From positions 878,501 through 942,500 of the forward strand of contig NZ_CP042466.1 of assembly GCF_008330225.1 (NCBI RefSeq): 64,000 bases of DNA. The letters are read 5' to 3'. The notes under the pieces are model-generated. The model saw nothing but the letters and a program-made list of their open reading frames with translations. It searched no databases and was not told the origin of the DNA. The position numbers and the translations under genes are program-made. Of the stretch, positions 4,179-29,037 are shown piece after piece. Origin of the DNA: Geobacter sp. FeAm09. Its GTDB lineage: Bacteria; Desulfobacterota; Desulfuromonadia; Geobacterales; Pseudopelobacteraceae. Positions within the stretch are counted from its first letter, which is position 1. The number at the start of each line of letters is the position of its first letter.

Positions 4179-4254
<76 letters not shown>

Positions 4255-4265
4255 AAGATAGCCAA

Positions 4266-5768
4266 CTACCTCAGGTAGTTATCAGGATACAGCCCCTGAC
4301 TTTGACCAAAACTTTGACCAAAAGCGATGGCCATGGCAGGGGCTTCTGCTATTTGCAGCGGTATGGCAGGCAACGCCATTTTCTGCCGGTATCGCTCTGG
4401 AAACGCAGTCCGCAACTCCTCCAGCGCCAGGAAATCATCCCCTAAGTAGTCCAGAATCTCCTGCCGTTCCTCGACCAACCCCTTGCGATACCTGCCGTAC
4501 ACTTCGTCAATCATCTTTTTGGTCGAGTGTCCCATCAGGTCCACCAGCCGGTTCTTGTTCACCCCGATCAAGAGCGCCCACTGTACGAAGGTATGCCGTG
4601 ATGCATAGGGAACCCTGTTTTCGATGCCAGCCTGCCTGATCGCCTTGTCCCAGACCGTTTTGCGGAAAGAATCGTAATTGAACGGTCCCCCATCCTTCAT
4701 GGTCAACAGAAAGGCTTGGGCCGGGAGTTCAAGGTCATCCTCGAATCTGATGATCCGGTTGGAAGTCGATGAAGCGGCTGCCTGTTCCGCCAATCTCTTC
4801 AGCTTGGCGGACAGGGGAATCTCGCGCTTGCGGTACCAGTTCTTGGGCTTGAACTTCAGGTGGCTCTTACCGTCCTTGTCACGGACCACCGCGCACCTCA
4901 CCTGAATGGTCACGTCCTTAACATGCCGTTTCTGCAGTCCCTCCAACTCGCTGCCAATCATCCCCATCAGCAATAGTTCCATCACCACATGGTAGTGGGG
5001 ATCAACACAGGCCAGCAGCTTGAGCCATTCCGGCAGCAGGAACACGTCCCTCGTGGAGCACGCCTCATCACCATCATCTGCCAAGGCCGCCTTTCGCTCC
5101 TTCTCCTGAACGGCCTTATCCTTAATCTCATCATACTTGGCTGAGATGCCTTCGAACGGATTGTGCAGGAACCAGTTGTGATCGTTGACAGCCGCACTCC
5201 ATACCTTGGACATGGGAATCAGGAGATTCTTGATGCGCTTCACGGATAGGTTGCCCTGAGAACCCTTGCTCCTCTTCAAATTGTCAATGAACAGTTCGAT
5301 TTCCGTAGCCGTGATTTTGGAGAAGGGCATCTCACCAAAATACGGCAGGATTCTCGAATTCAGCGCTTCCCGGTAATCCCGCTGCTTGGTGATCGAGGCA
5401 AAGGTCGGGATCTTACGAGCCATCCAGCCCTCTGCATAATCACGGAACAGGACGTGTTCCGCTTCCGGCTGGTAATCATTCCCTTCCAACTGGGTGAAGT
5501 GTTCTTTGGTCCGAGCGTCAAGCCAGTAAAACGATTTGGAGAAAGAGAACGTCCGGCGCTTGATTTTTTCGCCCACCTTGTCCATAAACTCGCAGAGTTC
5601 TTCCCAGTTTTCCGGGGTATCCTCCCGGTCGGTCGGGAACCGCAGGCGCTGCTTGAAATAGTTCATCGAAATATAGATGAACCGCGACCCTTTCATGGTG
5701 TACAGGCTACCGAACTCGGGCTTTCTGTGCCATGGTTTCTTCATTTCCGTTGCAACTGTCTTCTTCAT
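4266..5768 (-). CDS. Tyrosine site-specific integrase
   Basis: This 500-residue recombinase presumably integrates the island at the tRNA-Gly 3' end. It has an N-terminal arm-type region, a SAM-like core-binding domain (about 105-190: FRDYAEGWMARK, then TEIELFIDNLKRSKG) and a C-terminal catalytic domain. Visible catalytic residues are Arg in YASRHTF (the usual His of HxxR is Tyr), the GH of LMGHSTKKMIDEVY, and the final Tyr in VYGRY. The first catalytic Arg, normally after TG(L/M), is Ile here (MGMIGSELEGL). AAAGGATC lies about 8 bases before ATG 5768. The gene points towards the tRNA and ends beside attL. Confidence 0.9.
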   Translation of the reverse strand: MKKTVATEMKKPWHRKPEFGSLYTMKGSRFIYISMNYFKQRLRFPTDREDTPENWEELCEFMDKVGEKIKRRTFSFSKSFYWLDARTKEHFTQLEGNDYQPEAEHVLFRDYAEGWMARKIPTFASITKQRDYREALNSRILPYFGEMPFSKITATEIELFIDNLKRSKGSQGNLSVKRIKNLLIPMSKVWSAAVNDHNWFLHNPFEGISAKYDEIKDKAVQEKERKAALADDGDEACSTRDVFLLPEWLKLLACVDPHYHVVMELLLMGMIGSELEGLQKRHVKDVTIQVRCAVVRDKDGKSHLKFKPKNWYRKREIPLSAKLKRLAEQAAASSTSNRIIRFEDDLELPAQAFLLTMKDGGPFNYDSFRKTVWDKAIRQAGIENRVPYASRHTFVQWALLIGVNKNRLVDLMGHSTKKMIDEVYGRYRKGLVEERQEILDYLGDDFLALEELRTAFPERYRQKMALPAIPLQIAEAPAMAIAFGQSFGQSQGLYPDNYLR

Positions 5769-8917: not shown

Positions 8918-9271
8918 TTACTTTTTGATTCCAGTCAGAAGACCTTTTATTGTTGCAAGGAATATTTTTTGTTCTTTCTCGCTGAGACTCCTGATTTTCA
9001 TTAATGCCATCATAAGGTCATCTCGTTCTACCTTTGCTTGATTAATATCAATTAGCTGAGGTAGCGGCACATCCAGACTGATTGCCATGCGGCGAAAAAT
9101 GCCGATTGAGGCATTAGCCTTGGCATTCTCGATGTTTGAAATGTATGTGGGATGGACTCCGGCTAATTCGGCAAGTCGTTCTTGTGAGATTCCGTGAGCT
9201 TTTCGGAAGTCGCGTACTCGATACCCCAACAATTTTAAAAACTCTTTTTCTTCATTTCCCATGTCTTCCAT
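8918..9271 (-). CDS. XRE-family transcriptional regulator
   Basis: This 117-residue protein has a Cro/C1-type HTH at about residues 12-66 (VRDFRKAHGISQERLAELAG, then THPTYISNIE-like spacing as VHPTYISNIENAKA). The short C-terminal helical tail (SEKEQKIFLATIKGLL) probably dimerises. Such regulators in islands often control excision or a neighbouring toxin or restriction operon. Starts at 9271 (ATG) and 9262 (ATG with GGAAG close upstream) are both possible. Two near-identical 12-bp direct repeats lie just upstream and could be its autoregulatory operators. Confidence 0.88.
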   Translation of the reverse strand: MEDMGNEEKEFLKLLGYRVRDFRKAHGISQERLAELAGVHPTYISNIENAKANASIGIFRRMAISLDVPLPQLIDINQAKVERDDLMMALMKIRSLSEKEQKIFLATIKGLLTGIKK

Positions 9272-12151: not shown

Positions 12152-13696
12152 ATGTCGATAATCATAGAAAAGTTGGCTAGGATTCGTGCAGGAGGGGCAA
12201 TTCGCTACATGGATCTTTTCGCAGGGTGTGGAGGTATCTCCCTCGGTTTCCTAACAGCGGGCTTTTCACCTGTATCCTTTGTAGAAATTGATGAGTGGGC
12301 CGCAGCTTCACATCGGACGAATATTGCTGATAGCAATAGCGCATTAGCTGGACAGCATCATGTCGCGCGAGATATTACAACTGAAGATCCTGAAACCATT
12401 TTTGCCGACCTAGAGCTTACTGGGGCCGTTGACCAACAGATAGACGTTCTTGTAGGTGGCCCCCCATGCCAAGCTTTTGCGCGAGTTGGGCGTGCAAAAT
12501 TGCGTGAACAAGCATACCGTCGCGCCGAAGAAACAGCTGATTTTGCTTTTCTCGTTGATGGGCGAGTAAGTCTTTGGCGGCGATACGTGGAGTATGTGCG
12601 AGCTACAAGGCCTATAGCGCTTCTAATGGAAAATGTGCCTGATATCCTTAATCACGGTCACATAAATGTTGCCGAACTTATTGCCAGATCGTTATCCGAT
12701 GAAGGTTATGAAGTTCGTTATACCCTGTTAAACGCATCTTGGTACGGGACCCCCCAGACTCGGGAACGAATGATCCTTGTTGGGTATCACAGAGAAACGG
12801 GCTTAATTCCACAATTTCCCGTTCCGACACATCATGTTGTTCTCCCCAGAGGGTACGAGGGCACAAAAAACACCGCCAGAAAGGTATTAATCCGCCATGG
12901 TTCAGATCACCACGTTTATATATCTGATCCATCCCCGACACTTCCCGCGGCAACAACTGCACGCGAAGCTCTTGCTGATTTGCCCTCGATATATGCTCTG
13001 AATCTCTTTCAGAAGGGGCACTTGAAACGCGGACGAAAAGATCCTGCTGAACCGTGCATTTACACTTCTCAGGAGCCGACGACGAAATGGTCACGCCTCA
13101 TGAGACATTGGGATGGTTTTGGTACAACTGACCACACAACGGGGCATGTAATACGATTTCTACCCCGCGACTATAAGATTTTTGCTGAGTTGGAAAATGG
13201 GTGGGAATATCCGGAGATATGGCAGCACGTTGAAAATAAGATTTCAGCTTGGCTCCAGGACCGAAGCAGACGTGGTCTTTCGACAGATTACCGGAACCCG
13301 GATGTCAAAGACTTTATGGAGAGTTGGCGCATTCCGTATGACAAAGACAAATTCCCGAACAAATGGTGGGTCCTTGAAGCTGAGAAACCAGTACGCACGC
13401 TGTTAGCACATTTAGGTAAAGATTCGTACTCCCATATCCATTTTGACCCGGCACAAGCAAGAACAATATCTATCCGTGAAGCAGCAAGACTCCAAGGGTT
13501 CCCAGACGGCTTTAAATTCTGCGGATCAATGAATCCCGCCTTCAAACAGATTGGAAATGCTGTGCCTCCACTATTCGCCTATGCGTTGGCTGTTGCAATG
13601 AAATCTACGATAGGTGCTCCTGTGGATGATGACATCAGGGTTCGTTTGTTGGAATTGGAACAATCTCTAATACAAATAACGGAGGGAACCACGTGA
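12152..13696 (+). CDS. DNA (cytosine-5-)-methyltransferase
   Basis: This 514-residue enzyme would methylate cytosine C5 in a specific DNA site using S-adenosylmethionine. The motifs appear in canonical order: motif I DLFAGCGGISLGF (about 23-35), motif IV GGPPCQAF with the catalytic Cys, motif VI MENVPDI, motif VIII QTRERMILVG, and motifs IX-X in the C-terminus (AARLQGFPDGF, QIGNAVPP). The region between VIII and IX, the target-recognition part, is long. It heads a tightly packed operon and overlaps the next gene by 4 bases. With Vsr at the operon end it is likely the protective arm of a restriction-like system. Confidence 0.95.
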   Translation: MSIIIEKLARIRAGGAIRYMDLFAGCGGISLGFLTAGFSPVSFVEIDEWAAASHRTNIADSNSALAGQHHVARDITTEDPETIFADLELTGAVDQQIDVLVGGPPCQAFARVGRAKLREQAYRRAEETADFAFLVDGRVSLWRRYVEYVRATRPIALLMENVPDILNHGHINVAELIARSLSDEGYEVRYTLLNASWYGTPQTRERMILVGYHRETGLIPQFPVPTHHVVLPRGYEGTKNTARKVLIRHGSDHHVYISDPSPTLPAATTAREALADLPSIYALNLFQKGHLKRGRKDPAEPCIYTSQEPTTKWSRLMRHWDGFGTTDHTTGHVIRFLPRDYKIFAELENGWEYPEIWQHVENKISAWLQDRSRRGLSTDYRNPDVKDFMESWRIPYDKDKFPNKWWVLEAEKPVRTLLAHLGKDSYSHIHFDPAQARTISIREAARLQGFPDGFKFCGSMNPAFKQIGNAVPPLFAYALAVAMKSTIGAPVDDDIRVRLLELEQSLIQITEGTT

Positions 13697-15672
13697 TTTT
13701 CACCGTCTTGAGAAGGTTACAACATTCTGAGCTGGGTATGTTCCATGCCTACCGGAAATTAGGAAAAGAAGGATCAAAACAACGTGCCGTGAACTTTGAC
13801 GGTGATGTCGTTGATCGCGTTTTTCCATCTGCAAAAGATACGGATAAGATTCTCATTGATTGTACGTACCAGCAGGACGCGTCCACCATTGATACAGTTC
13901 AACAATGGTTGAAAAGGCAGGATAAAAACTGGCGCTTCGAAGGTAACTGCCCGAAGAGCGACTATTACAACTTTGTCGAGCCTGGGTGTTTGTTCGCGAT
14001 GACTGTTGATGCAGGCGTGACTCCTGCCAAGGCCTCATGGGTGGTCATTCCGAATACCGCGCCATCGTATAGGATTATACTTGATCACGCTGAAAGTGGC
14101 GGATTGGCGTCAGCCAGCATGATAGCGTTGTATGGTGACGAGTGTGCCCATGTTCGCAGAGTACTTGGTTCTCATTACCCCGATCTTTTCGAGGAGGCCC
14201 CTGGTATGTTCCTGAAAAAAGATGATAATGAAAATGACATGGCACCGGATCCGGTGGGCACATTTCATATGCTTGCCAACGCAGGACATGACCTCCAGTC
14301 TGCTATTGCTGATCTTGTGGATAATGCCATTTCTGAAGGTGCCACATCTATTGATATTACTTTCCCAAATCCGAACAATGGTGGTCGATGGATGTGCATT
14401 CGTGACAATGGCGATGGGATGTCACCGGAGGAACTTCGGAAAGCAATGATTGTAGGCAAACGACGGGCCTATGACCCCCGTAATCTGGGACGGTATGGCT
14501 TCGGACTGAAGGGAGCTTCTTGGTCTCAGGCGGACACTTTGACAGTTATGAGTAAGAAGAATGGAGTGGTGAGCAATCTCACATGGGATAAGGAACACTT
14601 GGAACGCACGGGGCGATGGGCGGTACTTGACGATCCTATCCCGGAACAATATATGTATGCCGCCACACTGAGTGGTGTTGCAGGTACATCTGTATTACTA
14701 ACTAACATGCGTCCCCCTGCCAAAACTCCAGCTGTCAGAGGTGTTGATCCATATAATGTTGAAGTCGCTGAAGTCCACAAGCACCTGGGACTGGTTTTCC
14801 ACCGATTCCTGACGGGGGATGCACGTGGACATAATCCAGTCGCCATCATGATTAATGGTGTGCATGTGACGCCAAACAACCCCCTGCTGCATCCACTGAC
14901 AAAGCAACATGCCCAAAAACAGATAGAGTGTCAAACAGGTGATAAGACCCCACCTGCAAAAATCACCTTGCAAGCGCACGTTCTCCCGACCGAGGAGCAA
15001 ATAAAGCAGCATCATGCCCAGGAGGGCGAGGTTGCAGTGAGGTCAGAGCTGGAAAGGCTATCTCTCGGGGGAAGAATGAACGAGAACCAAGGCCTATACT
15101 TTTATCGATTAGATCGGCTCATCAAGTGGGGAGGCTGGTGTGGCGTATTTGCTGAAGACGAGCACACAAAACTACTGAGGGTGGCGGTTGATTTTGAACG
15201 GGATGCAGATGATGCAATGAAGGTCAATATATCGAAACGTGAAGTTCAGTTATCGGTAAGACTACGAGAGGCGATAAAGGAGGCAGTAAAAGAGGGACGC
15301 GCCGATGCCAGAAGCCGTTATGACAAAAAGCCTGCCAAACCACAGAAGCCAACTCCCAATGACAAGAATAATGCTCCTACACCGTCGCCGAATGGAGGAA
15401 CAGGTGGCCCACAACCGCCGACACCTGCAAATGTGACAACAGGTGGATCCAGGCGTCCGACTCCTGCCCCTGCAGATCAAGTTATTTTCCGTATAGTTGC
15501 AATGGAAGGAAAATGGCAAAAAAGCCAGGGGTTCCTGAAAGAAACGATGATCCAGGTAAACGAGAACTTCTTACCACTGGTGTCTTTGGTTCAAACCATA
15601 GAGAACAACTCGGAAGCGAAAAAAGCACTCGCCGAGTTCCTTGACACGCTGGATGTTCAAGCTAATGCCTGA
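13693..15672 (+). CDS. MORC-like GHKL ATPase of a restriction-linked system
   Basis: This 659-residue protein has a GHKL ATPase domain at about 185-330. The N box is SAIADLVDNAI, the G1 box is RDNGDGMSPEEL, and the G2 region is RYGFGLKGASWSQAD. The preceding 180 residues are unassigned. After the ATPase and transducer-like part comes a Pro/Thr/Asn-rich linker (about 545-600) and a short helical C-terminal domain. Prokaryotic MORC-type ATPases encoded next to methyltransferases and nucleases were described by Iyer, Abhiman and Aravind (2008) in restriction contexts. GGAGGG precedes GTG 13693. It probably uses ATP-driven dimerisation to clamp or loop DNA. Confidence 0.88.
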   Translation: MIFTVLRRLQHSELGMFHAYRKLGKEGSKQRAVNFDGDVVDRVFPSAKDTDKILIDCTYQQDASTIDTVQQWLKRQDKNWRFEGNCPKSDYYNFVEPGCLFAMTVDAGVTPAKASWVVIPNTAPSYRIILDHAESGGLASASMIALYGDECAHVRRVLGSHYPDLFEEAPGMFLKKDDNENDMAPDPVGTFHMLANAGHDLQSAIADLVDNAISEGATSIDITFPNPNNGGRWMCIRDNGDGMSPEELRKAMIVGKRRAYDPRNLGRYGFGLKGASWSQADTLTVMSKKNGVVSNLTWDKEHLERTGRWAVLDDPIPEQYMYAATLSGVAGTSVLLTNMRPPAKTPAVRGVDPYNVEVAEVHKHLGLVFHRFLTGDARGHNPVAIMINGVHVTPNNPLLHPLTKQHAQKQIECQTGDKTPPAKITLQAHVLPTEEQIKQHHAQEGEVAVRSELERLSLGGRMNENQGLYFYRLDRLIKWGGWCGVFAEDEHTKLLRVAVDFERDADDAMKVNISKREVQLSVRLREAIKEAVKEGRADARSRYDKKPAKPQKPTPNDKNNAPTPSPNGGTGGPQPPTPANVTTGGSRRPTPAPADQVIFRIVAMEGKWQKSQGFLKETMIQVNENFLPLVSLVQTIENNSEAKKALAEFLDTLDVQANA

Positions 15673-18001
15673 TGTCTTTAACATAATCAGAATCCGCCCC
15701 CCAGTCCCTTCATGGACCGATGGGGCAGAATGGCGGAACTGGTCGCGTCATGAGGAGTACTTGCGATCACTTCCAGCATGGAAACCACATCAAGTGGACA
15801 GTGTCGCGGCTGAGTCCATGAGGATTCTGAGCAAGACGGTCCCTGTGTCACGCTCGGAGTTCCAGTGCCGTGGCTTGGTCGTGGGCTACGTCCAAAGTGG
15901 AAAGACCGCAAATTTCACTGCATTGGCAGCACGAGCTTCAGATGTTGGATACAGGCTGATTATCGTCCTTTCAGGCATCCACGACTCCTTACGTGAACAA
16001 ACTCAGAAACGGCTGAACAAAGAACTGGTGCAGATCGGGGAGAACTGGACCACCCTGACAGATCACGACAATGACTTCTTGATACCACCTAATCCTGATG
16101 GATTCGGCACTGGTGGGACTGTCTTAGTTGTTGCCAAGAAGATCGTACCAGTTCTGAACAGAATCAGCAGTTGGCTCTCTATTGTCGGTGAGAGGATGAA
16201 AGATATTCCTCTCCTCCTTGTAGATGATGAAGCCGATCAGGGCTCCATCAACACGAAGGGCAATCGTCGCGACGTAACCGTCAGTAGTGTCCGGCTTACT
16301 GATGAGAAACTTGATCCAGACACAGCCCCAACCCGGACTAACGCGCTTATACGTTCCATTCTGAACAAATGCCCCCGTGCGACATACGTGGCCTACACAG
16401 CAACCCCATTTGCCAACCTTTTCATCAATCCAGAAGCGTTTGATCGTGAGGTAGGACATGACCTGTTCCCTCGCGACTTTGTTGTTCAACTTCCTCGACC
16501 AGAAGGATACACGGGGACTGAAGAATTATTTGGACCTGCTGCTGCTGAAATGGATGTCTTACGTTCTGTTGCTGACGAGGACGTGCTTAATTTGCGTCCA
16601 AAGCGGAGGAGGAAAGGTACTCCGATTGTAGTCCGGAACCAGGAGCAGTTACCCCAGAGCCTTTGCGATGCCCTTCTGGCATTCTGCATCGCCGGCGCGA
16701 TAAGAACTTTCAGGGGGATCACAGACAAGCCGCACACGATGCTTGTCCACGTGTCACATGAACAGAAAGACCAAATGCGTATTGGAGAGGCCATAAGGGC
16801 TCAATTACGCGCTTGGCGCATGAGCGAGGAAGTCCAGTCGGGATCAATGCTGAATCCCATTCGGTCAGTACTGAAGGATTTTGGCAGGTTTGCGCTTCCC
16901 GATGGCATAACTGAGGAAAATATAATCAAGAAAGCGATTCATATCCTCAAAATCATCGAAGATGTTGCGATTCTGAATTCAACTACAGGTGAGAATCTGC
17001 GTTATGAAGACCGCCCATCCTGTCATCTCATAGCTGTCGGTGGAAATCGTTTGTCACGCGGATTGACACTGGAAGGATTGACAATAGCCTATTTCATACG
17101 CACCACAACTACCGTTGATGCCCTGCTACAGATGTGCCGCTGGTATGGATTCCGGTCCGGGTATGGTGACCTCATTCGCATCTGGACGACTCAAGGCATC
17201 GCGGACTGGTTTGTTGAACTTGCGGTAGTCGAACAAAGTCTTCGGGACAGCATTCTACGACTGGAAAAAGCTGGAAAACGACCAGACCAGATGCAGGTAG
17301 CTGTAAGAGCTCATAGCCACTTATTGCTCACCAGTAACGTAAAAAGTCGCATGGCTGATCATTCGGGGCGGACATGGTCTGCACAATGCCCGCAGACAAT
17401 TTTATTACCCCTGTCAAATCTTTCCATCCTACGCAGAAATATTGATGCAACGTCAAGACTTCTGTCAGAACACCCTCCAACAGTAAATCGTCATGGTGGT
17501 GCCATCGCCTTTGATATCGACGCTACAGCGATAACTACTTATCTTCGGACATTTCAGGGGCATCCTGATGCAATAGCATTCAACAGCGAGGACCTTGCCG
17601 AATGGATTGAAGAGCGCGTTGCAGTTGGCGAGCTTGAAAAATGGACTATTTTCGTGGCCTCACCCGACCGGCAAAATCAAACGGTCATTGGAGACAGGTC
17701 ATACGGTTTAGTAAAACGTAAACCAACTGGCAATTCAGGTATTGGAATTCTCGTTGATCCTCGTCACGAGGGAGTTGACCTGCCAGGTGGGCCAGAACTG
17801 TACCGGAAGGGTAACTCATATAACGCCAATGCAATGCGGGCTAACCGCTCCTCATCAAACGGATTACTTTTGATATATCCTCTGGATCCGATCCCTTTGG
17901 GTGTCACGGCCGAAACTGTAATAGCTCTTGCAGCATCATTGCCTAAGACCGGAGATGACGGTGAAACATACTTCGTCAATAGCGGGGTGCCACGTGGCTG
18001 A
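15665..18001 (+). CDS. Z1-domain superfamily II-like ATPase
   Basis: This 778-residue protein carries a Z1 domain, found in prokaryotic restriction and MORC-linked systems. The Walker A region is VGYVQSGKTANFTALAA, motif Ia-like is LIIVLSGIHDSLREQT, Walker B is LLLVDDEADQGS, and motif III is YVAYTATPFANLF. Later segments resemble helicase motifs V and VI (VGGNRLSRGLTLEGL; LLQMCRWYGFR). It is probably a DNA translocase or remodelling ATPase. ATG 15665 overlaps the upstream stop (ATGCCTGA); TTG 15641 and ATG 15653 are in-frame alternatives. It overlaps the next gene by 8 bases. Confidence 0.92.
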   Translation: MPDVFNIIRIRPPVPSWTDGAEWRNWSRHEEYLRSLPAWKPHQVDSVAAESMRILSKTVPVSRSEFQCRGLVVGYVQSGKTANFTALAARASDVGYRLIIVLSGIHDSLREQTQKRLNKELVQIGENWTTLTDHDNDFLIPPNPDGFGTGGTVLVVAKKIVPVLNRISSWLSIVGERMKDIPLLLVDDEADQGSINTKGNRRDVTVSSVRLTDEKLDPDTAPTRTNALIRSILNKCPRATYVAYTATPFANLFINPEAFDREVGHDLFPRDFVVQLPRPEGYTGTEELFGPAAAEMDVLRSVADEDVLNLRPKRRRKGTPIVVRNQEQLPQSLCDALLAFCIAGAIRTFRGITDKPHTMLVHVSHEQKDQMRIGEAIRAQLRAWRMSEEVQSGSMLNPIRSVLKDFGRFALPDGITEENIIKKAIHILKIIEDVAILNSTTGENLRYEDRPSCHLIAVGGNRLSRGLTLEGLTIAYFIRTTTTVDALLQMCRWYGFRSGYGDLIRIWTTQGIADWFVELAVVEQSLRDSILRLEKAGKRPDQMQVAVRAHSHLLLTSNVKSRMADHSGRTWSAQCPQTILLPLSNLSILRRNIDATSRLLSEHPPTVNRHGGAIAFDIDATAITTYLRTFQGHPDAIAFNSEDLAEWIEERVAVGELEKWTIFVASPDRQNQTVIGDRSYGLVKRKPTGNSGIGILVDPRHEGVDLPGGPELYRKGNSYNANAMRANRSSSNGLLLIYPLDPIPLGVTAETVIALAASLPKTGDDGETYFVNSGVPRG

Positions 18002-18953
18002 ATGGGTCACTGCTGACGCCTGGGCTAACCTCCGGGAAGGGCTTTCCAGCAACCAGATCATTCGCGAATACATCACCAATAATGGCCAACAGACTTCGTG
18101 TGCTCTCGCTGTAGATGATAACGCAAAGCTGCATCTGATGATTCACGTCCCGGATGAGTCAATCCCACTTCCTCCTGATCTTAACAACATAACCATACGT
18201 TACGTGGACATTGATTGTCTTGTTGTAGATGTAGCCGCCGATGCTTCATTGGAAGCAGTCATCAATCCAGTTTTTGATGCGATCATATCCGGATGTGTGG
18301 ACGGACGCCATCCTGTCCAGGTTGTTGCGGATCATCTGGAAAGAATTCGTAAGGCATTTGCTCGTGCTGGATCGGCAATAAGCGAAAACAAGCAGATCGG
18401 TCTTGTCGGGGAACTGATAGTAATGCACCGAATCATTATCCCAGGGATCGGTTATAAAGCTGCTTTCCAATGGAGCGGCCCGCTGGCGGAACGACATGAC
18501 TTTGTTGGAGAGCAGTTACATCTCGAAGTTAAGAGCACCACGAGATCGATGGACCAACATGAAATTTCCCGGTTGGATCAGTTGAGGGTTCCAGACGGCA
18601 AACGACTTCTTCTCGCAAGCATTCAGCTGGAACGTTCAGTAGCAGGTGAATTTACCATTGCAACTTTGCGCGAGGATATCATAGCAGCCTTGGCTGAAAG
18701 TCTATCAGCTGTTGATGATTTCGAGAGGAAAATGGTAGATCTAGGCTGGCATGATGGCCTTGTACAGTCAGGTACGCTGCTGAAATTTAACCTGAGAGCT
18801 TTGAATGTTTTTGCTGTGGAGGGTCAGTTTCCTCGGTTACCAGATGACTACACTCCACCACGAGGAGTCGTGGCAGTAAACTACACCATAAATGTAGCAG
18901 CGTGCCCCATTATGGAACCCGATGCAGTTATGACCCTGGTCGCGACAATGTGA
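17994..18953 (+). CDS. PD-(D/E)XK-type protein, DUF4420 family
   Basis: This 319-residue protein matches the family usually encoded just after Z1 ATPases. The centre has LVGELIVMHRI followed about 35 residues later by RHDFVGEQLHLEVKST, a good fit to a nuclease core with Glu, Asp and ExK. It is presumably the DNA-cutting or DNA-binding partner of the Z1/MORC ATPases. GTG 17994 overlaps the Z1 stop codon. The family identity is good; nuclease activity is inferred from the motif. Confidence 0.85.
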   Translation: MAEWVTADAWANLREGLSSNQIIREYITNNGQQTSCALAVDDNAKLHLMIHVPDESIPLPPDLNNITIRYVDIDCLVVDVAADASLEAVINPVFDAIISGCVDGRHPVQVVADHLERIRKAFARAGSAISENKQIGLVGELIVMHRIIIPGIGYKAAFQWSGPLAERHDFVGEQLHLEVKSTTRSMDQHEISRLDQLRVPDGKRLLLASIQLERSVAGEFTIATLREDIIAALAESLSAVDDFERKMVDLGWHDGLVQSGTLLKFNLRALNVFAVEGQFPRLPDDYTPPRGVVAVNYTINVAACPIMEPDAVMTLVATM

Positions 18954-18985
18954 GTTCAAACCTCCCAGTAATCAGGAAGGACACG

Positions 18986-19495
18986 ATGTTTACAAATAAC
19001 ACCGGCTCAGCTTTTACACTCAGTGGTATGGCAGATGAAGACCTCCTACTGCTGCGTGCAAATCTCGATGCAGAGATGCGGACACGCAAGATAGCCTTTT
19101 CTGTTGGAGAAGTTGGAGAAGTACTTACTATCGAGTATTTCAAGACGACTACAGGGCTCCCCAAACTTCAGAAAGCTCCAACTGGGACAAAGAATGTTGA
19201 CGCTCTATCACGTAACGGTGACCGCTACTCGATCAAAACCATCTGCAAGGGTAAGAAAACTGGAACCGTATACCCTGACTCAGAAAATCCAGACAAGCAG
19301 CTATTTGAGTATTTGCTCATTACGCATCTGACAGATGCTTGGCATCTAAAAACCATTCATCAATTGCCGTGGGATGTCTTTAGAGAAGTACGCTCCTGGG
19401 ATAGGCGGATGAATGCTTGGTATGTTCCAATATCTGGGAGATCACTTTCCGCAGCGACCGCCATATTTGACGGTTCAGTCCTCAGGTATGACTGA
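18986..19495 (+). CDS. Small PD-(D/E)XK-like protein, possible restriction endonuclease
   Basis: This 169-residue protein has AGGAAGGA placed well before ATG 18986. The core reads VGEVGEVLTIEYF, then NVDALSRNGDRYSIKTI. The Glu, Asp and S-I-K positions resemble a compact PD-(D/E)XK nuclease in which Ser replaces the usual Glu/Gln of ExK. The remainder contains an aromatic C-terminus (AWYVPISGRSLS). It lies between the DUF4420 gene and vsr, overlapping the latter by 8 bases, so it belongs to the operon. The most likely role is the site-specific endonuclease paired with the methyltransferase. I do not recognise a named family with certainty. Confidence 0.65.
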   Translation: MFTNNTGSAFTLSGMADEDLLLLRANLDAEMRTRKIAFSVGEVGEVLTIEYFKTTTGLPKLQKAPTGTKNVDALSRNGDRYSIKTICKGKKTGTVYPDSENPDKQLFEYLLITHLTDAWHLKTIHQLPWDVFREVRSWDRRMNAWYVPISGRSLSAATAIFDGSVLRYD

Positions 19496-19919
19496 TATAT
19501 TCACGTCAGCGAAACGCTCTGAAATCATGTCCCGTATCAAAGGGCGTGATACTAAACCTGAACGTGCTGTCCGCTCTCTGCTTCACCACATGGGCTATCG
19601 ATTTCGCCTTAACCGAACCGACCTGCCTGGCAGGCCGGATATCGTTTTGTCTCGTTACAAATCAGTTGTCTTAGTTCACGGCTGTTTCTGGCACAGACAC
19701 GAAGGCTGTCGCTTTGCCTATATTCCAAAGTCCAGAATTGATTTCTGGCATGTTAAGTTCGAATCGAACATTAATCGGGACAATAAGGTCAAGGCCGATT
19801 TGGAGCAGCTTGGTTGGCGAGTAATCATTGTTTGGGAGTGTGAGCTTCGCCAAACAGATGAGCTATGCAGTCGCCTTGATGCCACTTTGAGAGGGTTGGT
19901 ACGACTAGCGGAAGAATGA
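19488..19919 (+). CDS. vsr: Very short patch repair endonuclease Vsr
   Basis: This 143-residue endonuclease nicks 5' of a T:G mismatch left by deamination of 5-methylcytosine. It aligns along its length with the family: RSEIMSRIKGRDTKPE at the start, GRPDIVLSRY with the metal-binding Asp, HGCFWHRHEGC with catalytic and structural His/Cys, FWHVKFESNINRD, and LGWRVIIVWECEL. It overlaps the preceding stop (ATGACTGA) and closes the operon. It should protect the sites modified by the methyltransferase encoded at 12152. In this operon type Vsr-fold proteins may alternatively act as the restriction nuclease. Confidence 0.94.
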   Translation: MTDIFTSAKRSEIMSRIKGRDTKPERAVRSLLHHMGYRFRLNRTDLPGRPDIVLSRYKSVVLVHGCFWHRHEGCRFAYIPKSRIDFWHVKFESNINRDNKVKADLEQLGWRVIIVWECELRQTDELCSRLDATLRGLVRLAEE

Positions 19920-20192: not shown

Positions 20193-20426
20193 GGAGCAAC
20201 GACATGCTGGGACCTCTGACAGAACATCACCCCTGCTAATGTCGGCTTGCATGCGAGTAAGTTGTTTGATCGAAGACTTTGACAATGCTTTGACTAAAAG
20301 CTTAGTATTTAATGCATTCTGCTGAACGTTTGCAAACGAAAATCAGCCGACGAAGAAGATATAACTATTTAATATATTGTTGTTTTAGTAAAATAGGCAC
20401 GGTTTCGACTGACCTCTGAAAATGGC

Positions 20427-20450
20427 TTCGAATCCCGTTTCCCGCTCCAT
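20427..20450 (+). repeat. attachment site copy 2
   Basis: Exact 24-bp copy of the tRNA-Gly 3' end, without the rest of the tRNA. It is followed by a terminator at 20463-20489, as expected behind a tRNA gene, so it may mark an ancestral chromosome junction or the left end of a second insertion. Confidence 0.88.
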
Positions 20451-21207: not shown

Positions 21208-23991
21208 ATGAAATTTTGTGTCCGTTTAATTATCATGATGTTCATGCTGGCTAATGTTTGTGCTACTGCATACGCAGGCAACTATGTCGTTAATGTGTTT
21301 GCCGACACAAACGCCGGCACTCCGGCAGGAAGCGGCGGGGGGACCCCAGGAGATTTGCGTGATGCCATTAATTCTGCCAACACAGCTGGTGGTAGCAATA
21401 CCATTACCTTTAGCGGCGGACCTGCGACCATCCTTTTGAATGGTCCTTTGCCTGCAATAACGAGCGATCTGACTATCGATGGTGGCACAGCAGGCAATAT
21501 TACCATCGATGGCAATAACCTTTACCGCGTCTTTTTTGTAGATTCAGGCACCGTGGTGCTGAAATACCTGAAGCTCCAAAACGCCAAGGCCAAGGGAGGC
21601 AACGGCGGTACCGGTGACGGCGGCGGCGGTGGTGGCGCAGGTCTTGGCGCAGGTCTGTTCGTCAACAAAGCAACGGCCAACGTCACGATTACCAATGTCG
21701 ATTTCATCAACATGAGCGCAGTTGGCGGTAACGGTGGAAACTTTTTTGGCTCGAGCCCGCCTGGTGGTGGCGGCGGTGGCCTCGGCGGGGACGGCGGAAG
21801 CAGCACTGGCAACTTTGGCGCGCCTGGTGGTGGCGGCGTGCTGGGCGCTGGAACAAATACTACCAGTGGCACCAATGGCGCCAATGGTGGTCTGGGTGGC
21901 GGCGGCGGTGGTGGACTTCTTGGTGGGGGAACAGCCGGCACTGGTGGTGCAGCCTATGCTGGCAATACTGCCGGGGGCAGCCCTGCAAGCACGGCTGGCG
22001 GCGCTGGAGGCTTTGGTGGTGGCGGCGGCGGTGCACCTTTAGGAATTGGTGGCGCAGGTGGTTTTGGTGGCGGCGGTGGCGGGACCGGTACCAGTACACG
22101 TGGCGGAGCAGGCGGTCCTGGCGGTGGCGCTGGCGGAAGCGGTGGGGTTAATACGAGTACTCCGGGCGGTTCCCTCGGTTCCGGCATAAGCGGCGGCGGA
22201 AGTGGTTACGGCGGTAATGGGCCCAGTGGTGGTGGCGGCGGCGCTGCCGCCGGTCCGGTGATTTTTATTAATTTGGGGACAGTGGTTGTAGATTTGGCGA
22301 CAGTGACTTCCAGCGGGCACACCGCAACCGGTGGCGCTGGCGGCACATCATATGGTACCGCCGTCAGAGGTTATGACGGGACCGCCTCATCAGCACCGAT
22401 ATTTAACTATGGCGGTACCTACAATACTCTCACAACCACCGGCTCTATCTTCCTGGGACCAGTCGTTACCGGCATAGCTCCTTCCGGCGGTTTTACAACA
22501 GGCGGCACAAGTGTTGTCATTACCGGCGCCGGTTTCACCGGGGCTACGGCCGTTACCTTTGGCGGTACTGCAGCAACATCGTTCACGGTGGACTCAAATA
22601 CGCAGATCACCGCCACCGCGCCTGCTTCATCGGTGAGCACGGTTGACATCACTGTAACGACACCGGAGGGAACCAGCGCTACCGGCGTAGCGGATCAATT
22701 TACCTACGCCAGAGCCGGCCAAAGCATCGGCGCCATTAGTTTCAGCCCAGCCACCCTGGCCGTGGGTGGCGTCACTACCGTGAGTGCCACGGCCACCTCC
22801 GGCCTGGCGGTCACCTTCAGTTCCACCACCTTGGCCGTCTGCACCATCAGCGGCACGACGGTCACGGGGGTTAGCGCCGGCGCCTGCATCATCGCCGCCA
22901 ACCAAACGGGCAACGCCAACTACGGCGCGGCGGTCCAGACGACACAAGAGATCGCCGTCGCCATACCGCTGGCCCTGACCGTGTCGGCTCTCTCCAATGG
23001 CGCCACCACCACCGAAGCCACCCAGAATATCAGCGGCATGATCACCAATCCGGCCAACCTCAAGACACTTACGGTCAACGGCACCACCGTCACCGTCAAC
23101 TCCGACGGCAGCTTCAGCTACCCGGTACAACTGAAGGCCGGGGTCAATACCGTCACGGTCATCGCCACCAGCATCTCCGGGAATACGATCACCGACAGCC
23201 GCACCATCACCTTGGACAGCACGGCACCGATACTGACGGTCACCTATCCGCCGGACAACGGCATCGTCATCCAACAGACCATTACCGTGACCGGCACCAT
23301 TGCGGAACTGCTCAACAGTGCGACCAAGACAACGGCCAAAGAGGTTGCCCAGGACACCACAACGCCGACAGTCACCTACTCGGTCAACGGCTCCACCCCG
23401 CAAACAGCCAGCCAGACCGATACTACCTACTCCTTTGCCGCAACTCTGGGTACCGGCATGAACACCATCAAGGTATTCGCCACCACCAGCGCCGGGCAGA
23501 CGGTGGAGGCCAAGCGGACCGTCAGCTACCAGCCCGCCTTCTCCCTGGCCGTCACCGACCCGGCCACGGACATCCGCACTCCCCTGGGTTCGTACACCCT
23601 GGTCGGCAGTGTCACGGACAACACCACGGCGGTCGGCATCACCATCACCATGGACGGCCAAAGCTACACACCCACGGTGACGAACGGAGTCTTCCGGCAA
23701 CTGCTGGCCTTGAGCAGCGACAAGGTCTACCAGGTGTCGGTTACCGGCGCCGATCAGAACAACAACAGTCTGACGGTACAGCGCAACATCATCCGGGCGG
23801 TCCCGAATTTCACCATCGTGGACGCCTTGCAGGCGTTGCAGATGTCCGTGGGTATCATCGCCCCCACCGCTGACCAGACCCTGCGCCTGGATGTGGCACC
23901 CATGGTGAACGGCGTATCGGTGGGCGACAGCAAGGTCGATATCGAAGACGCAATCGTGATCCTGCGCATGGCCGTGGGGCTGATACAATGA
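21208..23991 (+). CDS. Large secreted glycine-rich protein with IPT/TIG, Ig-like and dockerin-like domains
   Basis: This 927-residue protein is exported by a signal peptide (residues 1-24, ending ATAYAG). Residues about 25-130 resemble the start of a beta-helix (GDLRDAINSANTAGGSNTITF, then LTIDGGTAGNITIDGNN). Residues 130-370 are a very glycine-rich repeat region. An IPT/TIG domain follows (VTGIAPSGGFTTGGTSVVI), then several Ig-like/cadherin-like repeats (about 500-850). The last 65 residues (VDALQALQMSVG, then GDSKVDIEDAIVILRMAVG) look like a dockerin-type paired EF-hand. It is likely a surface adhesin or matrix protein. The downstream lipoprotein may be its anchor. Confidence 0.75.
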   Translation: MKFCVRLIIMMFMLANVCATAYAGNYVVNVFADTNAGTPAGSGGGTPGDLRDAINSANTAGGSNTITFSGGPATILLNGPLPAITSDLTIDGGTAGNITIDGNNLYRVFFVDSGTVVLKYLKLQNAKAKGGNGGTGDGGGGGGAGLGAGLFVNKATANVTITNVDFINMSAVGGNGGNFFGSSPPGGGGGGLGGDGGSSTGNFGAPGGGGVLGAGTNTTSGTNGANGGLGGGGGGGLLGGGTAGTGGAAYAGNTAGGSPASTAGGAGGFGGGGGGAPLGIGGAGGFGGGGGGTGTSTRGGAGGPGGGAGGSGGVNTSTPGGSLGSGISGGGSGYGGNGPSGGGGGAAAGPVIFINLGTVVVDLATVTSSGHTATGGAGGTSYGTAVRGYDGTASSAPIFNYGGTYNTLTTTGSIFLGPVVTGIAPSGGFTTGGTSVVITGAGFTGATAVTFGGTAATSFTVDSNTQITATAPASSVSTVDITVTTPEGTSATGVADQFTYARAGQSIGAISFSPATLAVGGVTTVSATATSGLAVTFSSTTLAVCTISGTTVTGVSAGACIIAANQTGNANYGAAVQTTQEIAVAIPLALTVSALSNGATTTEATQNISGMITNPANLKTLTVNGTTVTVNSDGSFSYPVQLKAGVNTVTVIATSISGNTITDSRTITLDSTAPILTVTYPPDNGIVIQQTITVTGTIAELLNSATKTTAKEVAQDTTTPTVTYSVNGSTPQTASQTDTTYSFAATLGTGMNTIKVFATTSAGQTVEAKRTVSYQPAFSLAVTDPATDIRTPLGSYTLVGSVTDNTTAVGITITMDGQSYTPTVTNGVFRQLLALSSDKVYQVSVTGADQNNNSLTVQRNIIRAVPNFTIVDALQALQMSVGIIAPTADQTLRLDVAPMVNGVSVGDSKVDIEDAIVILRMAVGLIQ

Positions 23992-24020
23992 AACCTGAAA
24001 CTATCAAGGAGGATAATTCC

Positions 24021-24566
24021 ATGAAGAAGTACCTGAAACCGATATGCGTGGGGCTTGCGCTGCTGGCCCTGTACGGCTGCGGCGGAGATGGTGACGGCGG
24101 CCCGGCCCCGATCACGGATAGCTACCTGTTCCCGGCGGGCAAGGCGACCATTACCTTCACCGCCATGAGCACGGCAAAACTGGCCGCTCCCCTCAGCGGC
24201 ATCGACCTGAGTCTTACTCTGCCCCAGGGGATGAGCGTAACCACCGCGTCCGGCGCCTCCGGCCCGATCGCGACCGACTCGGTCACCCCCGGCTCGGCTC
24301 TGACCGGAACAAACCTGGCCTTCGGCACGTATTCGGCAACGACGCGCAAGGTTATCCTGGGCATGGTGACCACGAGCAACAGCTACCGTTCGGGCGAGTT
24401 TCTCCGCCTGACCTGCACCGTTGCCGCCAACACGAGTATCACCCTGGGCGGCCTGAAGACCGGGGCGCCGGTAACGGTGGTAAAGGCCGTGGGGTACGAT
24501 CCGGTGAGCAAGAGCACGGTAACGTTGACCGGTAACATCAAGGTGAACCTGGGGGCGGTGAGGTAA
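24021..24566 (+). CDS. Lipoprotein with possible cohesin-like fold
   Basis: This 181-residue lipoprotein starts at ATG 24021, preceded by AAGGAGG. The signal peptide ends LLALYGC, a good lipobox. The mature part is beta-rich and starts YLFPAGKATITFTAMSTAKL, with LSGIDLSLTLPQGMSV, a pattern seen in cohesin-type domains where a first strand is followed by a lipid-like Val/Leu sheet. It follows, 29 bases behind, a gene whose product ends in a dockerin-like module, so a cohesin-dockerin pair anchoring that protein to the cell surface is attractive. This is inference; the domain could be another beta sandwich. Confidence 0.6.
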   Translation: MKKYLKPICVGLALLALYGCGGDGDGGPAPITDSYLFPAGKATITFTAMSTAKLAAPLSGIDLSLTLPQGMSVTTASGASGPIATDSVTPGSALTGTNLAFGTYSATTRKVILGMVTTSNSYRSGEFLRLTCTVAANTSITLGGLKTGAPVTVVKAVGYDPVSKSTVTLTGNIKVNLGAVR

Positions 24567-24895
24567 GCCAGATTTCCTGCCACTGCTTCCATACAACAAA
24601 ATGACGGGACCGGTGATTGCCAATGTAGTACGGTGATTAGAATTTGACACATTTGCTGGGGTATGATAACTCGGCGTTCCGGGAATAGTATACGCATTAA
24701 CCAGTAGTTTTATATACTGTCTCTGGAACTTTCCTCTAACACTGTTGACCTGTTTACTGTCCCCGCTATGCCCCTGAGCAGGTCAGAATGGGTTGAAATT
24801 GATTGGACTAAACTGGACTGGTAACTGATGGAAGGTGGGTTTAATTGTATGAAATTAATGTTATATTTGGAACTGAATCAATTCTTCTGATATTT
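24567..24895. other. Intergenic region, nothing recognised
   Basis: About 330 bases between the lipoprotein gene and att copy 3, without a supported feature. Confidence 0.5.
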
Positions 24896-24918
24896 TCGAA
24901 TCCCGTTTCCCGCTCCAA
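24896..24918 (+). repeat. attachment site copy 3
   Basis: Exact 23-bp copy of the tRNA-Gly 3' end including the CCA. A strong terminator follows directly. Confidence 0.88.
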
Positions 24919-24920
24919 AC

Positions 24921-24970
24921 AAAAATAAAGGACTTAGCTGCTAGCGGCTAGGTCCTTTATTTTTGTTGTT
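24921..24970 (+). terminator. Terminator behind att copy 3
   Basis: A perfect 14-bp outer stem (CAAAAATAAAGGAC / GTCCTTTATTTTTG) encloses an 18-nt inner segment that can also pair in part. T runs allow termination in either direction. Confidence 0.75.
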
Positions 24971-25074: not shown

Positions 25075-25812
25075 ATGATTCGTATTGCGATTTGCGACGA
25101 TATACCGGGCGACCTTCAAGGTCTTGTCTCGCTGACCAATCAGTACCTGTCCACAAACGGTCTTGACGCCGAAGTGACAGGGTTTTCCCATCCGGATGCG
25201 CTGCTGACAGCCATTGAGGCAGAGAGCTTTCATCTTTACATACTGGACATCGTTATGCCCATGGTCAGTGGTTTGGAATTAGGCAAAGAAATCCGCCGTT
25301 TCGACCGTGAGGCGCAGATCATCTATGCCACCACCGAGCCGCAGTTTGCCTTGCAGGCATACGCCGCAAGCCCCATCAATTATCTCATTAAACCAATCGA
25401 CAAGCAGCAGTTGTTTGATACTCTGCCCCTCGCCCTCTCTAAAGCGGACCTCGCCGATGAGCAACCTTTTACCGTAAAAACTGCCGACGGTCTGCGGGTG
25501 ATCAAGCTGTCGAACATCTCGTGCTGTGAGTACCACCGTCACGCCGTCATTTTTAGCATCATGAGTGGCGAGGAGGTGTACAGCCGCAGCTTTAGGGAGA
25601 ATTTTTCGGAATACTGCGCGCCTCTTTTGCAGAACAGGCATTTTCTGCAATGCCACACCTCGTTTGTAATCAACATGCGTCGAGTGGAGCGTTTCGCCAA
25701 GGACAGCTTCACTCTTTACGGAGGCAAACTCGTTCCTATTGCGGCAAAGCGATACCCGGCTGTGCGGGATGCCTATATGGATTACCTGACGGCAAAAGGG
25801 GGGAACAGATGA
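25075..25812 (+). CDS. LytTR-family response regulator (AgrA-like)
   Basis: This 245-residue regulator has a receiver domain with Asp8-Asp9, phospho-acceptor Asp58 in YILDIVMP, and Lys in NYLIKPIDK. The C-terminal LytTR DNA-binding domain covers about 140-235 (FTVKTADGLRVIKLSNISCCE, and FLQCHTSFVINMRRV). Proteins of this build usually regulate peptide-signalled or membrane-stress genes in Firmicutes. The gene overlaps the kinase gene by 4 bases (ATGA), forming a pair. Its codon use and family look foreign to the surrounding chromosome. Confidence 0.92.
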   Translation: MIRIAICDDIPGDLQGLVSLTNQYLSTNGLDAEVTGFSHPDALLTAIEAESFHLYILDIVMPMVSGLELGKEIRRFDREAQIIYATTEPQFALQAYAASPINYLIKPIDKQQLFDTLPLALSKADLADEQPFTVKTADGLRVIKLSNISCCEYHRHAVIFSIMSGEEVYSRSFRENFSEYCAPLLQNRHFLQCHTSFVINMRRVERFAKDSFTLYGGKLVPIAAKRYPAVRDAYMDYLTAKGGNR

Positions 25813-27095: not shown

Positions 27096-27253
27096 AAGCC
27101 CGGAAGATGCTGGTCGTCGGGAGTTGAATCACGGCGCTAACGTTTTGGGGTGTAAAAATGAGTCTTTTAAGTGTAAAGACTCATTTTTTCCTTTTTTCGC
27201 GATATTCATGGGATCAAATTTACATGACGGCATTGGCTTGTCGGAGGTCCAGC

Positions 27254-28573: not shown

Positions 28574-29013
28574 TAATCTTTTGGCTGGGAAACCGTATTC
28601 AGCCAAACTGTTGTTAGATGAAGCGCAATTGCAGATATTGAGGGGAAAATTGGGAGCCAAACTTGAAACGTGGTGGCAAGAAGACCTTGGTCGCGCCTTC
28701 GACTGCCTTACCCAATCAGAAGCTCGGCATCTCGCCAACTCGCCGGATGGTGACACCATCAGAAAAGATTTGTTGCGGAGCAGCAAAATGGAAAGGACCG
28801 AGGCGTATCGGGCAAGAAAGGCGGCATGACGAAATTTTTGAGAATAAAGTCACCCCATCGTTCTTTTGCTGAGTTTTTTCAGGTTGGCTTGTAATCGTAA
28901 CGAAATCTCTGCAAATATTTTGACGGCAACCGCAGGGGTGACAATTGTTAACAGTATAATATTACTGCGTATTGTTGAGACTCGACCTGAAACAAATCAT
29001 TTATCTGGCTAAC
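28574..29013. other. Gap before att copy 4, possible gene remnant
   Basis: A TTG-started frame of 82 codons (28581-28829) lies here but has no Shine-Dalgarno sequence. Nothing else is recognisable in the 440 bases. Confidence 0.45.
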
Positions 29014-29037
29014 TTCGAATCCTGTTTCCCGCACCAT
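29014..29037 (+). repeat. attachment site copy 4 (degenerate)
   Basis: Matches the tRNA-Gly 3' end at 22 of 24 positions (C to T in the T-arm part, T to A before the CCA). It probably marks the right end of the accessory region. Confidence 0.7.

What the first reader, a model, noticed from the sequence alone, without database searches (positions are those of the whole stretch)
12152..19919. Six-gene methyltransferase-MORC-Z1-DUF4420-nuclease-Vsr operon
All six genes are coupled (overlaps of 4-8 bases, one gap of 32). C5 methyltransferase, GHKL/MORC ATPase, Z1 ATPase and DUF4420 protein match the restriction-linked MORC systems outlined by Iyer and colleagues in 2008, whose mechanism is largely untested as far as I know. 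The additional small nuclease-like gene makes this a complete candidate defence operon on a mobile island.
Basis: partly seen in the sequence, partly recalled or inferred. Interest (0 to 1): 0.75.

Follow-up and report, generated by a model that had tools for sequence, protein, structure and literature searches.

The report
Methylation-guarded MORC–Z1 restriction operon
A mobile DNA island carries six overlapping genes that look like an energy-driven anti-virus system, using a movable, so far unnamed domain that probably tells unmarked foreign DNA from the cell's own methyl-marked DNA, plus an extra cutter related to enzymes that attack methylated DNA.

Summary
In detail: six co-directional genes (12152-19919), with overlaps of 4, 8, 8 and 8 bases and one 32-base gap, encode a C5-methyltransferase, a MORC ATPase, a Z1 helicase, a DUF4420 nuclease, a small nuclease (ORF5) and Vsr. 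They are cargo of a 16-kb tRNA-Gly island whose empty site is seen in three same-genus genomes. Iyer 2008 and Miller 2022 described the core in kind; it is not a strict MZA system (no MzaA or AIPR in the operon, scores far below cut-offs). Two things are new here. (1) The MORC's N-terminal ~165 residues are a domain without a Pfam match. Elsewhere it stands alone beside MZA or DISARM-like genes, or is fused to a PD-(D/E)XK nuclease or a HerA partner; in each locus opened a C5-methyltransferase and Vsr are present. I infer that it reads the unmodified target site. (2) ORF5 is a BisI-family relative: fold match Z 14.8, catalytic E/D/K kept, an Arg-Met pair on the BisI methyl-binding motif. It is accessory and also occurs with a very different methyltransferase. 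Most likely: an ATP-dependent, methylation-guarded restriction system with an add-on, possibly 5mC-dependent, nuclease. No activity was shown.

The parts
12152..13696 (+). C5-cytosine DNA methyltransferase, ~500-aa type (514 aa)
   Evidence: PF00145 E=1.8e-56; motifs intact; 60% identical to the Azospirillum L004 MTase
13693..15672 (+). MORC-type GHKL ATPase with an extra N-terminal domain (659 aa)
   Evidence: PF13589 at residues 201-313; MzaB 160.1 bits vs cut-off 850; MORC2 is the best solved relative, E=7.1e-8
13693..14190 (+). N-terminal domain 'ORF2N' (~165 aa), proposed target-recognition module
   Evidence: No Pfam match (stand-alone relative L007); matches stand-alone rhizobial proteins, hhalign E=5.8e-7 on shallow alignments; fused or alone elsewhere
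15665..18001 (+). Z1 superfamily-2 helicase/ATPase (778 aa)
   Evidence: PF10593; MzaC 354.7 bits vs cut-off 1500; Walker A/B intact
17994..18953 (+). DUF4420 PD-(D/E)XK nuclease (319 aa)
   Evidence: PF14390; E140, D169, E178xK180 invariant in 7 of 7 aligned rows
18986..19495 (+). ORF5, BisI-superfamily PD-(D/E)XK nuclease (169 aa)
   Evidence: mREase_II 155.7 bits; family profile vs Eco15I E=5.6e-5; model pLDDT 91.5, NhoI Z=14.8, Eco15I Z=14.1
19488..19919 (+). Vsr mismatch endonuclease (143 aa)
   Evidence: TIGR00632 148.1 bits, above cut-off; solved Vsr 1cw0 E=9.7e-33
4179..4253 (+). tRNA-Gly(GCC), integration site of the island
   Evidence: ARAGORN, Rfam
4228..4254 (+). left attachment repeat (27 nt, tRNA 3' end)
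   Evidence: direct repeat D2
20424..20450 (+). right attachment repeat, 96% identical to the left
   Evidence: in three same-genus genomes the tRNA end runs straight into sequence matching 20424 onward
4266..5768 (-). tyrosine integrase of the island
   Evidence: PF14659, PF12167 above cut-off; PF00589 E=2e-5, below cut-off

Best explanation
The operon is an ATP-dependent, cytosine-methylation-guarded restriction system carried on a mobile island. The C5-methyltransferase marks a short site in the host. The N-terminal domain of the MORC protein (ORF2N) reads the unmarked form of the same site on incoming DNA; this loads the MORC ATPase clamp, engages the Z1 helicase as an ATP-driven motor, and lets the DUF4420 nuclease cut. 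Vsr repairs T:G mismatches left when host 5-methylcytosine deaminates, so that self sites are not lost. ORF5 is an accessory BisI-type nuclease, most likely set to cut DNA that carries dense or foreign 5-methylcytosine, which would close the escape route of phages that modify cytosine. Shown here by computation: gene content, catalytic residues, homology of ORF2N to separate proteins and fusions, BisI fold of ORF5, island and empty site. Inferred: every step of recognition, motor action and cleavage, and the substrate of ORF5.
For: Families and motifs. ORF2N is a separate gene between MTase and Vsr in rhizobia and sphingomonads and is fused to a PD-(D/E)XK/NOV_C nuclease beside MTase and Vsr in Deinococcus and, as an overlapping three-gene run, in G124, a genome of the window's own family: the layout of a simple restriction enzyme, so ORF2N is the likely reader. 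All 17 loci with ORF2N also hold MTase and Vsr hits (in L008 the MTase is a fragment; 15 of the 17 were found through ORF5, so they are not independent), and so do the 3 found later with ORF2N itself and opened, L058, L059, L062. Precedent: CglI/NgoAVII pair a C5-MTase, a B3-domain nuclease and a Z1-domain ATPase; cleavage needs ATP hydrolysis (PMC4267653). ORF5: NhoI Z=14.8 and Eco15I Z=14.1 against about 10 for PvuII; Arg-Met at the (H/R)(V/I/T/M) methyl-binding motif, which fits in 33 of 34 rows, window included; window ORF5 groups with that of L020 (89/91, 73% identity) although the L020 methyltransferase is very distant and lacks the long variable region, so ORF5 is not tied to one methyltransferase.
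Against: No experiment. ORF2N has no detectable solved relative and its model is poor (pLDDT 45), so DNA binding is inferred from context only. Five relatives with AAA+DUF2357 engines have the same ~500-aa MTase type but no detectable ORF2N, and the five unnamed MORC-Z1-DUF4420 loci L063-L067 have none either, so other readers must exist. In ORF5 the BisI Gln of QxK is Ser in 32 of 34 rows, and the Eco15I Arg98 position is not Arg in the window (alignment, uncertain there), so activity or 5mC-dependence could be lost. A 5mC-dependent nuclease beside a 5mC methyltransferase risks suicide unless their sites differ.
Confidence: 0.6

Rival explanations
1. ORF5 is the ordinary restriction enzyme of the MTase: it cuts the same site when unmethylated, and MORC, Z1 and DUF4420 only help or form a second layer.
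For: Small PD-(D/E)XK protein beside an MTase; PvuII, a conventional enzyme, is the next best fold match; 29 of 34 ORF5 loci have a C5-MTase hit.
Against: L003, L004 and L059 keep MTase, MORC, Z1, DUF4420 and Vsr without an ORF5 hit; an ORF5 of 73% identity sits with a very different MTase in L020, though equal specificity of the two MTases is not excluded; the BisI methyl-binding pair is kept.
Confidence: 0.2
2. ORF5 works with Vsr as a repair pair at deaminated 5mC sites rather than in defence: BisI enzymes tolerate T:G mispairs in their site (PMC11347163, section 26).
For: Vsr lies within 200 bases of ORF5 in 25 of 34 loci; in the window they overlap by 8 bases.
Against: Vsr works without such a partner in E. 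coli (recalled); a double-strand cutter at mismatches would be harmful; 5 of 34 ORF5 loci have no Vsr hit, and in L026 and L029 the neighbouring Vsr is on the other strand.
Confidence: 0.1
3. ORF2N is a protein-docking domain that ties the engine to the methyltransferase or Vsr, not a DNA reader.
For: No fold or family could be assigned; in the loci opened it travels with the same partners.
Against: Its fusion to a nuclease beside MTase and Vsr leaves no other evident reader for that nuclease.
Confidence: 0.2
4. The locus is simply a divergent MZA system.
For: MzaB, C and D are the best named matches of ORF2, ORF3 and ORF4; a rhizobial relative does have an AIPR/MzaE gene.
Against: Scores 160/850, 355/1500 and 62/420 against NCBIfam cut-offs; no MzaA match in the operon and no AIPR match among its six ORFs.
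Confidence: 0.15

Closest known systems
MORC-Z1-novel RE fold-DCM-VSR neighbourhoods of Iyer, Abhiman and Aravind 2008 (PMC2292703; parts 1-2 of 4 of its main section read)
   Same: MORC ATPase, Z1 SF2 helicase, RE-fold nuclease with E-D-ExK, cytosine methylase, Vsr
   Different: An extra N-terminal domain on the MORC and a BisI-type nuclease gene are not mentioned in the parts read; figures not seen
Putative Z1/DUF4420/C5-MTase defence system of PMC9523054 (Nat Commun 2022; section 11 read; the text prints 'DUF4220')
   Same: The three core genes; its type I also has six genes and is associated with repair endonucleases
   Different: Identity of its three extra type I genes is not in the text held; its type II has AIPR, the window does not
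MZA (mzaABCDE)
   Same: Homologues of MzaB, MzaC, MzaD
   Different: No MzaA or MzaE match; an MTase, ORF5 and Vsr instead; far below curated cut-offs
CglI / NgoAVII R-M systems (PMC4267653; abstract and passages)
   Same: C5-MTase plus Z1-domain SF2 ATPase plus a sequence-reading domain; ATP needed for cutting
   Different: The nuclease there is PLD-type fused to a B3 domain; three genes, with no MORC or DUF4420 among them
BisI family (NhoI, Eco15I; PMC11347163, section 13 part 2 and sections 22, 23, 25, 26 read)
   Same: Fold, E/D/K, (H/R)(V/I/T/M) position
   Different: Ser for Gln in QxK; sits in an MTase operon; activity untested
HEF_HK / Response_reg_2 systems with C5-MTase and Vsr (PMC8011034; passages only)
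   Same: Loci such as L020-L023, with the closest ORF5 relatives, have a like layout: MTase, ~700-837-aa ORF (in L020 with HATPase domains at both ends), a 414-467-aa protein, then ORF5 and Vsr
   Different: Other engine and a very distant MTase. I grouped these loci with that paper by layout: in Pfam neither the HEF_HK nor the Response_reg_2 model appeared for the L020 proteins, and the L022 protein hit Response_reg only below cut-off

Membership tests
Iyer-type MORC-Z1 restriction operon | MORC GHKL ATPase with intact ATP-binding motifs and S5-domain motif GhXhhpXXRhl | tested here: met
   DLVDN, DNGDGM, GRYGFGLK; GLYFYRLDRLI, read by eye in the translation, fits the motif printed (my search pattern did not code that motif properly and found none)
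Iyer-type MORC-Z1 restriction operon | SF2 helicase with C-terminal DThhQXuRhFG motif | tested here: met
   PF10593 E=7.3e-60; DALLQMCRWYG at 485, two departures from the motif (A for T, Y for F)
Iyer-type MORC-Z1 restriction operon | RE-fold nuclease with E-D-ExK, plus DCM and VSR | tested here: met
MZA | MzaB, MzaC, MzaD at or above NCBIfam cut-offs | tested here: not met
   160.1 vs 850, 354.7 vs 1500, 62 vs 420 bits
MZA | MzaA and MzaE in the operon | tested here: not met
   the MzaA model's 5 hits in the genome all lie outside the window (the model is unspecific, it also rings in 10 of 14 control genomes); no AIPR match among the six ORFs
BisI family of modification-dependent endonucleases | BisI/PvuII-like PD-(D/E)XK fold | tested here: met
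BisI family of modification-dependent endonucleases | catalytic Glu, Asp and QxK | tested here: inconclusive
   E45, D72, K84 in 34 of 34 rows (window plus 33 loci); Q replaced by S in 32, A in 1, T in 1
BisI family of modification-dependent endonucleases | (H/R)(V/I/T/M) internal methyl-binding motif | tested here: met
   R141-M142 aligned to Eco15I His-Val by HMMER, two MAFFT runs and hhalign; fits in 33 of 34 rows (L030 has Thr for Arg)
BisI family of modification-dependent endonucleases | cleavage of GCNGC only when methylated | not testable with these tools
   needs purified protein
EcoRII-N / B3-like DNA-binding domain (for ORF2N) | sequence or fold match to EcoRII-N or B3 domains | tested here: inconclusive
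   no Pfam match and no EcoRII-N or B3 chain in the PDB profile searches; hhalign to a stand-alone EcoRII-N protein gave nothing; model too poor to search
PMC9523054 type I six-gene system | Z1, DUF4420 and C5-MTase core | tested here: met
   against the text
PMC9523054 type I six-gene system | the three additional genes | not testable with these tools
   not named in the text; figure and supplement not seen

The most novel reading that the evidence does not exclude
ORF2N is an undescribed portable reader of unmethylated target sites that, with one group of C5-methyltransferases and Vsr, forms a common chassis onto which nature bolts at least four restriction engines (MORC-Z1-DUF4420, DISARM-like DrmA/DrmB/NERD-helicase, a HerA partner, a single PD-(D/E)XK nuclease); joined to a BisI-type 5mC-dependent nuclease it makes a two-sided gate that attacks DNA with too little or too much cytosine methylation.
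Probability: 0.3. Interest if true: 0.8.

Novelty: new variant of a known kind. Interest (0 to 1): 0.6.

Why it matters
Iyer 2008 ties eukaryotic chromatin MORCs to prokaryotic ones in restriction operons, and how the bacterial ones are aimed at DNA is, to my knowledge, open. A MORC with its own proposed recognition domain, whose relatives occur alone or on a simple nuclease, makes that directly testable. If ORF2N sets specificity, engines could be compared on one target, and the domain's nuclease fusions in G124 or Deinococcus offer a minimal test enzyme. A BisI-type nuclease kept beside C5-methyltransferases in loci from several phyla (titles) is a puzzle, because such enzymes have the potential for conflict with conventional modification (PMC11347163 section 25).

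Tried and rejected
EcoRII-N/B3 identity for ORF2N: suggested to me by eye, but no support from hhalign, PDB profiles or a model good enough to search; left open. Viral contigs: no relatives of Z1, ORF5 or ORF2N in three scans. MzaA in the operon: none. RNA features in 4000-31000 at gathering score: only the tRNA. ORF2N in the AAA proteins of the DUF2357 loci: no hit. The AAA-DUF2357, HerA and DISARM-like engines were identified from one or two representatives each, the others grouped by BLAST; L027 was called DISARM-like on that basis alone. 'NurA-like' for the C-terminal part of the L026 protein is my reading by eye; Pfam gave only a sub-threshold DUF1127 match and PADLOC none, so I do not use it. 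The label-shuffle test for the two DrmA/B rows is uninformative (500 of 500 shuffles as low); only the supported branches speak. Dropped rows: L024 and L046 (contig edge, fragment) from the ORF5 tree, L046 from the residue counts; L047 had no ORF5 hit with the profile although one search listed it on 25 residues; the Rhizobium sp. T1473 plasmid (H30, H41) was not opened because its match scores equal those of T1470, which was; G557 was not opened.
Full report
Observation. The six genes exist as described and are tightly coupled: overlaps of 4, 8 and 8 bases, a 32-base gap, then an 8-base overlap. Pfam names five (MTase, HATPase_c_3, Z1, DUF4420, Vsr); the remaining one (ORF5, 169 aa) matches only DUF6998 below its cut-off but PADLOC's methyl-directed mREase_II at 155.7 bits. 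Signature residues are present.

Setting. The operon lies in a low-GC stretch (0.49 against 0.64 outside) beside tRNA-Gly(GCC) at 4179-4253 with an integrase at 4266-5768. The 27-base tRNA end 4228-4254 recurs at 20424-20450 (96%), and less well at 24892 and 29011. I looked for the left flank in 20 genomes, the window's own included, and took stretches from four of the five other same-genus genomes. In three of these four (G115, G117, G114) the sequence runs from the tRNA end directly into sequence matching window 20424 onward, i.e. the site is empty; in G118 nothing past the tRNA aligned. The fifth, G116, had matches to the tRNA part only and was not taken. So the operon is the cargo of a 16.2-kb integrated island. 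The organism was not identified.

The MORC protein has a second part. The GHKL domain starts near residue 200; the first 186 residues match no Pfam family. In rhizobia and sphingomonads the MORC protein lacks this part, and a separate ~190-aa gene between MTase and Vsr carries it (hhalign E=5.8e-7 on shallow alignments; then 17 loci by an iterated profile). Fusions to MORC: window, L003, L004, L059. Fusions to a PD-(D/E)XK/NOV_C nuclease: L058 Deinococcus (E=1.2e-9), L062 from G124 of the window's own family (E=7.9e-16) and, weakly, L003 (E=7.2e-5 with filters off) (NOV_C match for L058 and L003; for L062 the nuclease part rests on PADLOC TmtA matches like those of the other two). One fusion in L026 sits beside a HerA helicase gene. 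It stands alone beside DISARM-like DrmA (724.5 bits) and DrmB (244.2 bits) in L031, with the related L032 grouped by BLAST. In each locus opened that has the domain, a C5-MTase and a Vsr are present (17 of 17, of which 15 were found through ORF5 and one, L008, has an MTase fragment; plus L058, L059, L062). The domain is rare: 2 of 395 genomes of the window's phylum sample, one being the window's own, and 4 of 297 in the order of the L037 genome. I infer that it is the target reader; the MTase, ORF2N-nuclease, Vsr loci are the best argument. I could not assign a fold.

Engine exchange. In a tree of 31 methyltransferases, the two DrmA/B-type loci fall at two separate places among the MZA-type loci, forced by well supported branches (2 changes). 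I read this as a change of engine while MTase, ORF2N, Vsr and ORF5, all present in L031 and L032, stayed. With only two such rows the label shuffle says nothing. The base of the ~500-aa MTase group is unresolved in that tree, and the window's branch with L004 has 80/100 support.

ORF5. A genome scan with its family found 28 loci; with seven plasmid loci a profile confirmed ORF5 in 34 (27 + 7). A C5-MTase hit is in 29 of 34, a Vsr hit in 29 of 34, and Vsr lies within 200 bases in 25 of 34. ORF5 was in 1 of 141 genomes of the window's order, its own. The family profile hits Eco15I (E=5.6e-5; NhoI 0.71, not significant). The AlphaFold model (pLDDT 91.5) matches NhoI (Z 14.8, rmsd 2.4, 140 residues) and Eco15I (Z 14.1, rmsd 2.3, 141 residues), then PvuII at about 10. 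E45, D72 and K84 are in 34 of 34 rows (window plus 33 loci), but the BisI Gln is Ser in 32. R141-M142 falls on the His-Val that in Eco15I and NhoI touches the internal methyl group (motif (H/R)(V/I/T/M); PMC11347163 section 23; alignments). I placed that His-Val in the printed chain by an offset of five residues, which also puts Arg98 on an arginine; that Arg is not kept in the window. Window ORF5 groups with that of L020 (Gallionella; 89/91, not a starred branch; 73% identity), whose MTase is very distant and has no long variable region. This speaks against a one-to-one R-M pair, though equal specificity of the two MTases is not excluded.

Relation to print. Iyer 2008 (two of four parts of its main section) describes the MORC/Z1/RE-fold/DCM/VSR core. 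PMC9523054 (2022, section 11) describes a Z1/PD-(D/E)XK/C5-MTase putative system with a six-gene type. PMC4267653 (abstract and passages) reports for CglI and NgoAVII that a Z1-domain ATPase, stimulated with its B3-domain nuclease by unmethylated sites, is needed for cutting. The window is not an MZA system by the tests above. In my searches I saw no paper on the ORF2N domain or on a BisI-type gene in such operons (the library lacks most subscription papers, one search returned unrelated papers, and a domain without a name cannot be searched by word). The main text of one BisI paper, PMC8281217, does not use the word operon. 'BisI' and 'very short patch repair' co-occur in 5 papers; I opened one, where 'BisI' matched only an author's name; the other four, two of them restriction-enzyme reviews, were not opened.

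Judgement. A real and probably working restriction-type defence operon of a known kind, with two features that I did not find described: a movable candidate reader domain and a BisI-type accessory nuclease.

Noticed in passing
window 24892-24918 and 29011-29037: Two further, weaker copies (85% and 81%) of the tRNA-Gly end, suggesting older or stacked integrations downstream of the island; a 25-nt inverted repeat abuts the first (24918-24967).
   Followed up: partly
window 21208-24566: Glycine-rich 927-aa protein with TIG and Glucodextran_B domains followed by a 192-aa protein with no Pfam match.
   Followed up: partly
window 25075-27095: LytTR response regulator followed by a protein with a GHKL HATPase_c_5 domain, then a calcineurin-like phosphoesterase at 27158-28573.
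   Followed up: no
window 8918-9271: HTH_3 (Xre-type) regulator on the minus strand inside the island, a possible control gene.
   Followed up: no
L037:1-1779: The gene next to DUF4420 in this rhizobial locus is AIPR/MzaE, so the locus combines MzaBCDE homologues with MTase, ORF2N, Vsr and ORF5; like genes are grouped by BLAST at the same place in six further loci.
   Followed up: partly
L020:5504-6475 and L023:314-1330: Methyltransferases of these loci have SPECT where the window enzyme has PPCQA, and no long variable region.
   Followed up: no
L010, L011, L045: Exiguobacterium loci with ORF5 relatives carry large proteins with sigma-70 region 4 (Pfam for L010 and L011; L045 by BLAST); PMC9523054 calls mzaA a sigma factor.
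   Followed up: no
L043: Sphingomonas koreensis locus holds both the AAA-DUF2357 pair and genes grouped by BLAST with DrmA, DrmB and NERD-helicase beside one MTase, Vsr and ORF5.
   Followed up: no
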